NCBI GenBank assembly: GCA_945897885.1
Contig: CAMDGU010000022.1
Location: 1 to 44,058 of the forward strand
Direction: 5' to 3'
Length of the DNA stretch: 44,058 nt
Source of the DNA: Chitinophaga pinensis
GTDB taxonomy: Bacteria; Bacteroidota; Bacteroidia; NS11-12g; UBA9320
The position numbers were made by a program, and so were the translations under genes. Under the pieces are notes generated by a model. That model did no database searches. It was given only the letters and a program-made list of their open reading frames with translations, and had not been told where the DNA came from. Below are positions 33,591-34,276 of the stretch, one piece after another. The first letter of the stretch is position 1, and each line of letters starts with the position of its first letter.

Positions 33591-33621
33591 ACTTTTCCAA
33601 AGTTTAAAACTCTGGAAAAGT
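33591..33621. repeat. REP hairpin copy 1
   Basis: ACTTTTCCAAAGTTT followed by AAACTCTGGAAAAGT is an inverted repeat with one imperfect pair (T for T) in the arm. It lies one base beyond the stop of the second RAYT transposase gene. Confidence 0.85.
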
Positions 33622-33622
33622 T

Positions 33623-34219
33623 TTAATAAGAGAATTCAATAAAAAAAGAAGGGTCAATTGGCTCTTGATGTTTTTGAATGAATTGCTGTTTTGAGCCAAA
33701 TAAAGTAAGAGTTCCTTCTCTTTTTAACAACGTTTTCTTATCAGAAATTAAACTTTGATACGATGACCAGGGCCAATCTGCCGAGGAAATTCCAAACCCA
33801 TGATGCTGAGGATTGTTGTGTATATAATGAATAGTATTGGTAAAATAAGTTGGATTATCAATCGGCTTTCTATTGAAATTCTTAATAAAGAGAGAGCCTT
33901 TTCGGCTGTAAATTTTATTGTAAGATTGGGTGTATGAACTAAAAAAATTTGAAAACTGTTTTGAAATCCCTTTTTCTAACTTTTCCAAAGTTTCAAACTT
34001 TGGAAAAGTTTTACGAAGAGTCTCTTTATCTTTTATTTGAACCAATATATGAAAATGATTAGGTAGCAAGCAATATGCAAAGGTGTCAGCAATTGGACTG
34101 ATATGAAATGCATATTTTTTTAAAAAGAATGAAAAATTATCATCCGAACGAAACAGATTTTCATTTCCATTAGCATGATTGTAAATATGATAAAAGTTAT
34201 TCGGAGATAAGGTTACCAT
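33623..34219 (-). mobile_element. REP-associated tyrosine transposase (RAYT) gene with internal REP copy
   Basis: The 198-residue product is a Y1 transposase of the RAYT group: FYHIYNHANGNENLF at the start, HUH motif LPNHFHILVQ, then SKQFSNFFSSYTQSYNKIYSRKGSLF and TNTIHYIHNNPQHHGF with the nucleophilic Tyr in this last segment. It is full-length. A REP hairpin (33979-34009) lies inside the coding sequence and encodes TFPKFETLEKL in frame, and further copies stand one base beyond the stop and ~25 bases before the start. The transposase would recognise and cut such single-stranded hairpins. It and the RAYT at 23.3 kb are different subfamilies. Confidence 0.9.
33979..34009. repeat. REP hairpin copy 2, inside the RAYT coding sequence
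   Basis: ACTTTTCCAAAGTTT, one base, then AAACTTTGGAAAAGT: a perfect 15-base inverted repeat. It is read through by the transposase gene. Confidence 0.9.
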
Positions 34220-34245
34220 AATTCAAAGATGCTTTTCTCTTTTAA

Positions 34246-34276
34246 TTTTTCCAAAGTTTCAAACTTTGGAAAAGGT
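34246..34276. repeat. REP hairpin copy 3
   Basis: TTTTTCCAAAGTTT, one base, then AAACTTTGGAAAAG repeats the same hairpin ~25 bases upstream of the transposase start. Confidence 0.85.

What the first reader, a model, noticed from the sequence alone, without database searches (positions are those of the whole stretch)
33591..34276. RAYT transposase gene carries its own REP hairpin in frame
Three copies of a near-perfect 31-base hairpin (arms ACTTTTCCAAAGTTT) surround this gene, and one is inside it, translated as TFPKFETLEKL between the HUH motif and the Tyr region. RAYT proteins are known to bind and cut such hairpins. A REP that is part of the coding sequence means the gene's own single-stranded DNA or mRNA holds a target of its product, which could give autoregulation, or show REP insertion tolerated as a linker.
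Basis: partly seen in the sequence, partly recalled or inferred. Interest (0 to 1): 0.6.

Follow-up and report, generated by a model that had tools for sequence, protein, structure and literature searches.

The report
Transposase gene carrying its own hairpin
A small bacterial transposase-like gene carries, inside its own coding sequence, an in-frame copy of the DNA hairpin its protein family is thought to recognise; this was first described in 2018, but here the hairpin tracks the lineage's own repeat type, and many relatives that keep it as their only copy sit inside CRISPR-Cas9 operons.

Summary
The window gene (34219..33623, minus strand, 198 aa) is a RAYT/TnpA_REP transposase (closest solved fold: RAYT bound to a REP hairpin, 4ER8). 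A perfect 33-nt palindrome lies in frame between the HUH and Tyr motifs, and matching hairpins flank the gene. In-frame REPs at this place are already published (Quentin et al. 2018, subclass 2.4), so the phenomenon itself is not new.

What I add:
- 40 of 101 Bacteroidota homologues carry such a hairpin (codon-shuffled control 1 of 1010).
- Its sequence follows that lineage's flanking REP, is read in different frames, and is conserved at synonymous sites. The nucleic-acid hairpin, not the peptide, is what persists.
- These REPs almost never have the GT[AG]G foot.
- 17 of the 101 homologues sit co-directionally inside type II-C cas operons. All 17 carry the in-frame hairpin, against 23 of 84 elsewhere. 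A second sample gave 3 of 3 against 1 of 20.
- In 10 of 14 CRISPR-located cases tested, that hairpin is the only copy found in the genome.

Function (autoregulation, cis binding site) is inferred, not shown. Neutral tolerance remains a serious rival. I found no paper on RAYTs in cas operons.

The parts
33623..34219 (-). RAYT / TnpA_REP Y1-type HUH transposase gene, 198 aa; HUH = NHFH (residues 54-57), catalytic Tyr in YIHNNP (Tyr132)
   Evidence: ORF; NCBIfam NF047646 REP-associated tyrosine transposase E 7e-14 but 51.9 bits, below its 80-bit cutoff; AF2 model pLDDT 91.9, best PDB fold match 4ER8, RAYT bound to REP, E 2.9e-8
33978..34010 (-). in-frame 33-nt REP hairpin (16+1+16), translated TFPKFETLEKL, between HUH and Tyr
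   Evidence: model places the residues in the loop before helix 78-104 and its first turn
34245..34275 (.). flanking REP hairpin, 5' side of the RAYT gene
33591..33621 (.). flanking REP hairpin, directly 3' of the RAYT stop codon

Best explanation
The gene is a RAYT, and its internal hairpin is a copy of its own cognate REP. The copy sits in a surface loop between beta-3 and helix alpha-C. SHOWN: the element is 33 nt (11 codons), stop-free in the frame used, matches the REPs flanking the same gene, changes with them between lineages, and is conserved as DNA more than as peptide. INFERRED: such REPs enter the gene through the RAYT's own single-strand cut-and-join activity. Only insertions in frame in this loop (or the tail) survive, and the hairpin is then kept because the enzyme uses a cognate site in cis. 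The likely use is as a binding or cutting site in its own single-stranded DNA or mRNA, giving self-recognition or self-limitation. Where the gene lies tightly packed in an operon, as in type II-C cas operons, flanking REPs of the same type are often missing and the internal copy is the one that remains.
For: Internal hairpin versus own flanking hairpins: mean similarity 0.69 against 0.36 +/- 0.03 for shuffled pairings, maximum 0.52 in 100,000. At residues identical between homologues, hairpin codons are identical in 89% against 49% elsewhere. Among 32 distinct internal hairpins, 97.9% of pair cells pair, with 131 two-sided changes against 43 in shuffles. The same hairpin is read in different frames (NFSKV versus TFPKF) in syntenic cas9-RAYT-cas1 genes, with gaps on either side of the hairpin but none inside it. 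A C-G to T-A change on both arms occurs in G063 and G487, where it is the only copy found. G114 has two RAYTs in one cas operon, each with its own matching REP. CRISPR-located RAYTs: 17/17 with the hairpin versus 23/84, and 3/3 versus 1/20 in a second sample.
Against: About 60% of homologues have no internal hairpin, so it is not essential to the family. L099 keeps the peptide (QFPRFESIEKL) without a hairpin. RAYT remnants in four cas operons show the gene can be lost. Hairpins were found by being palindromic, so the pairing percentage is partly built in. With tree correction only 4 supported independent pairs exist, too few for significance. Mismatches do not favour an RNA or a DNA hairpin (7 G-T versus 5 A-C). 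No binding, cutting or regulation was measured.
Confidence: 0.55

Rival explanations
1. Neutral tolerance: REPs land often near their own RAYT, those falling in frame in a flexible loop do no harm, and turnover (insertion, loss, fresh insertion) makes internal copies look like current REPs. The hairpin has no use inside the gene. This is the reading of Quentin et al. 2018.
For: The insert lies in a loop and helix start. Internal copies elsewhere in the gene are rare (hairpins in 6 of 202 other gene pieces), several of them near the C-terminus. Presence or absence changes at least 16-17 times on the tree. In-frame REPs also occur inside cas1 of G263 and G154. REPs in frame in other genes are known (PMC3733652).
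Against: In 10 CRISPR-located and 3 other genomes the internal hairpin is the only copy found, so no donor is present, yet it is perfectly or nearly perfectly paired while the rest of the gene is saturated at synonymous sites. A two-sided compensated change occurs in such single copies.
Confidence: 0.37
2. The segment is kept for its peptide, a linker or helix cap, and the palindrome is incidental.
For: In most genes the hairpin centre has the same phase (centre mod 3 = 0 in most rows), giving a similar hydrophobic spacing (TFPKFETLEKL, NLQGFQNLEGL, LTTFKKLSNL). L099 keeps the peptide without the hairpin.
Against: Synonymous sites are conserved (89% versus 49%). The same hairpin is read in other frames (NFSKVRNFGKV in L026, L083, L079 and L047; a third frame in L022). 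Many homologues have no segment at all.
Confidence: 0.05
3. Chance palindrome in AT-rich DNA.
For: The window is AT-rich.
Against: 1 of 1010 codon-shuffled controls against 40 of 101 genes; three copies at one locus.
Confidence: 0.01

Closest known systems
TnpA_REP / RAYT subclass 2.4 with REPs inserted in the tnpA gene (Quentin et al. 2018, PMC6006769)
   Same: REPs in frame inside the gene, between HuH and Y (beta-3 to alpha-C), plus flanking REPs; Bacteroidetes included; motifs NHFH and YIxNNP
   Different: REPs there are defined by a GT[AG]G foot; here 4 of 146 hairpins have one near a foot. Matching of internal to flanking REP type, single-copy internal hairpins and location in cas operons are not mentioned there (no hit for CRISPR, cas1 or cas9).
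TnpA_Y1 subclass 2.6 (Bacteroidetes, atypical secondary structures)
   Same: Bacteroidetes, flanking hairpins without GT[AG]G, serine-containing tail motif (WSSY here)
   Different: HuH is NH[LIV]H there and NHFH here; [quoted passage not shown] internal REPs are not reported for it
Rickettsia palindromic elements and intragenic REPs (cited in PMC3733652)
   Same: Short palindromes kept in frame in coding genes
   Different: Those are in unrelated genes; here the host gene encodes the protein thought to act on that palindrome
E. coli TnpA_REP (4ER8) and IS200/IS605 transposases
   Same: Best fold matches
   Different: By the published descriptions (PMC6006769) their hairpins are at the ends or flanks, not inside the gene

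Membership tests
RAYT / TnpA_REP | HUH plus single Tyr Y1 nuclease fold of the REP-associated kind | tested here: met
   NHFH and YIHNNP motifs; 4ER8 top fold match E 2.9e-8; NF047646 E 7e-14, though below its curated cutoff
RAYT / TnpA_REP | low copy number, flanked by REPs that are repeated in the genome (REPtron) | tested here: met
   one RAYT in G000; flanking hairpins and 18 genomic copies
RAYT / TnpA_REP | binds and cuts its REP as single-stranded DNA | not testable with these tools
   needs biochemistry
Subclass 2.4 of Quentin et al. | REP inserted in frame between HuH and Y | tested here: met
Subclass 2.4 of Quentin et al. | REPs with GT[AG]G at the foot (canonical long or double foot) | tested here: not met
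   4 of 146 hairpins near homologues
Subclass 2.4 of Quentin et al. | placement in the published 2.4 clade or HMM | not tested
Subclass 2.6 of Quentin et al. [quoted passage not shown]
   NHFH; the REP-coded segment lies before helix 78-104, i.e. [quoted passage not shown]
CRISPR-associated gene (cas operon member) | window gene lies in a cas operon | tested here: not met
   no type II cas1 in G000; neighbours are a prolyl-oligopeptidase-like gene and an OstA-like gene as read from their translations; only relatives lie in cas operons

The most novel reading that the evidence does not exclude
A branch of RAYTs has become a recurrent accessory gene of type II-C CRISPR operons (mostly cas9-RAYT-cas1, also cas1-RAYT-cas2 and cas2-RAYT-cas9), always co-directional. 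These genes always carry their cognate hairpin inside the coding sequence, often as the only copy in the genome, so gene plus internal hairpin is a self-contained unit with a role in, or control over, the CRISPR locus (expression of cas1-cas2, spacer acquisition, or exchange of cas modules).
Probability: 0.2. Interest if true: 0.85.

Novelty: new variant of a known kind. Interest (0 to 1): 0.55.

Why it matters
Why RAYT genes persist as single, non-mobile copies, and what they do with REPs, is a long-standing open question. A gene whose own sequence holds one copy of its target, in genomes with no other copy, separates 'REP as spreading parasite' from 'REP as a site the enzyme needs', and gives a clean experiment: break the palindrome by synonymous recoding and keep the protein. 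The repeated presence of such genes inside type II-C cas operons also gives a concrete lead on a possible role in defence loci; Cas9 itself descends from IS200/IS605-type elements (stated for IscB in PMC10910872).

Tried and rejected
Pfam gave no family for the protein. Chance palindrome: rejected by codon shuffling. Peptide conservation: rejected by frame changes and codon identity. Reading the strand of action from wobble mismatches: undecided, 7 versus 5. Tree-corrected test of 'CRISPR location goes with internal hairpin': only 4 supported pairs, no power. A first similarity measure for internal versus flanking REPs was too rigid about loop length and picked some spurious hairpins; repeated with local alignment, still with a few non-REP hairpins left in, which works against the effect. 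The idea that the hairpin is a CRISPR repeat: by eye the array repeats found are unrelated to it. The order of G242 added no new RAYTs. Papers: nothing on RAYTs in cas operons in the open library; subscription papers and preprints were not searchable.

Full report
WHAT IS THERE. The gene at 34219..33623 (minus strand) encodes 198 residues with NHFH and YIHNNP motifs. The AF2 model is confident (mean pLDDT 91.9). Its best match among solved structures is the RAYT-REP complex 4ER8 (E 2.9e-8), followed by IS200/IS608/ISDra2 transposases. The NCBIfam REP-associated tyrosine transposase model matches at E 7e-14 but below its cutoff, and Pfam gives nothing. The genome (G000, 3.03 Mb, Bacteroidota judging by its relatives) has one such gene. 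The core palindrome occurs 18 times in the genome against one for the control pattern. Of 13 other copies inspected, none lies in an ORF of 80 aa or more.

PRIOR KNOWLEDGE. Quentin et al. 2018 (PMC6006769) report that RAYTs of their subclass 2.4 carry REPs inside the gene, in frame, generally between HuH and Y, and suggest the insert sits in a peripheral region with little effect. Di Nocera and colleagues (PMC3733652) describe in-frame REPs in many other genes. The finding as written is therefore known in kind.

HOMOLOGUES. I gathered RAYTs from the family, the order and 395 genomes of the class, plus close relatives in GTDB contigs, and parsed 104 genes, 101 of them comparable. Hairpins of 26 nt or more lie between HUH and Tyr in 40 of 101; codon-shuffled versions give 1 of 1010. 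Most internal hairpins fit a 33-nt frame of 16-bp arms around one base, a multiple of three that is stop-free in the frame used. The pieces before HUH and after Tyr hold few (6 of 202 pieces), some near the C-terminus.

THE INTERNAL REP FOLLOWS THE LINEAGE'S REP. Internal and flanking REPs in the same locus share their variable stem sequence: TTGACAACTTT in L028 and L030, TTTGGAAAG in L074 and L022, CTGCCAAAG in L066, TTCCGAAAG in L095, CCTTCAAGG in L080 and L090, CCCTGTCAGAG in L088. Mean similarity to the own flank is 0.69, against 0.36 +/- 0.03 for random pairing. In G114 two RAYTs in the same operon each carry their own type. Only 4 of 146 hairpins have GT[AG]G near a foot, so these are not the canonical REPs by which subclass 2.4 was scanned.

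DNA RATHER THAN PEPTIDE. At residues that are identical in two homologues, codons inside the hairpin are identical in 89% and outside in 49%. The same hairpin is read as TFPKFETLEKL or NFSKVRNFGKV. In five syntenic cas9-RAYT-cas1 genes the sequence on both sides of the hairpin has gaps while the hairpin has none, and L047 and L079 show a C-G to T-A change on both arms. Across 32 distinct internal hairpins 97.9% of pair cells pair, with 131 two-sided changes against 43 in shuffles and lower values for every slid register. The hairpins were chosen for being palindromic, so this last test shows diversity of intact stems rather than proof of selection.

TREE. On a tree built without the insert columns, hairpin presence changes at least 16-17 times and REP types alternate between neighbours. 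So the element has been gained, lost or replaced repeatedly at one place in the protein.

CRISPR CONTEXT. Reading the surroundings of single-copy cases showed type II cas genes (Cas1 TIGR03639 E 3e-91, Cas9 TIGR01865 E 5e-51). Seventeen of the parsed RAYTs lie beside cas1, all co-directional. Wider loci show cas9, cas1, a cas2-sized gene and often an array, with RAYT packed at 4-150 bp or overlapping its neighbours: mostly between cas9 and cas1, in G161, G263 and a second copy of G114 after cas1, in G048 before cas9. In the 395-genome class sample, 83 genomes have type II cas1 above the cutoff; comparing places by hand, about 13 have an adjacent intact RAYT and four more a remnant (G244, G209, G154, G357). 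A rough expectation for a random place within 1.5 kb is about 0.1% per gene (my estimate). All 17 carry the internal hairpin, against 23 of 84 others (Fisher 1e-8, not tree-corrected). A further order gave 3 of 3 against 1 of 20 (Fisher 0.002). In G242, G063, G487, G048, G490 and G003 and G129, G504, G511 and G517 the in-gene hairpin is the only match in the genome; G002, G148, G329 and G489 have more. Three non-CRISPR genomes (G073, G076, G077) also have only the internal copy.

MECHANISM. Shown: cognate REP, in frame, in a loop, conserved as DNA. Inferred: the REP came through the RAYT's own single-strand chemistry, and the hairpin is useful in cis. The rival of pure tolerance with frequent turnover explains the loop position and the changes of type. 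It has trouble with single-copy, well-paired hairpins in genes otherwise saturated at synonymous sites, unless those genes arrived recently by transfer and then lost their flanking REPs. I put cis function at 0.55 and tolerance at 0.37.

LIMITS. Genomes are drafts and many are MAGs; 'only copy' means at up to 2-3 mismatches of the pattern used. The windows around most loci were 1.5 kb each side. Papers outside the open library were not searched. Nothing was measured at the bench.

Noticed in passing
L083, L021, L023, L047, L079, L045, L046, L101, L095, L108, L084, L026, L067, L074, L096, L088, L027, L167, L169, L172; wide loci L144-L158: RAYT genes embedded co-directionally in type II-C CRISPR-cas operons, all with the in-frame hairpin; no report found in the open literature.
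   Followed up: partly
L159, L160, L161, L162: RAYT remnants next to cas1 in G244, G209, G154 and G357, so the gene is dispensable there or was replaced.
   Followed up: partly
L154:7904-7936 and L161:8909-8941: REP-type hairpins inside the cas1 reading frame of G263 and G154.
   Followed up: no
L125 (G412): RAYT reading frame open for over 500 residues, running through a REP-like stretch (NLQGLKDLVGF) into what reads like an oxygen-dependent coproporphyrinogen oxidase: an apparent gene fusion.
   Followed up: no
L146:6393-6878, L149:7736-8119, L154:6688-7479, L161:7226-8377, L162:1409-2545: Other accessory ORFs between cas9 and cas1 (by eye nucleotidyltransferase-like, Fic-like and ATPase-like), suggesting this gap is a general landing place for extra genes.
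   Followed up: no
L099 (G248): RAYT that keeps the REP-derived peptide (QFPRFESIEKL) but no longer has a detectable hairpin.
   Followed up: no
G005 and G006 (same genus as the window): Genomes about 99% complete with several copies of the REP hairpin but no RAYT found, consistent with loss of the gene after spread of the repeat.
   Followed up: no
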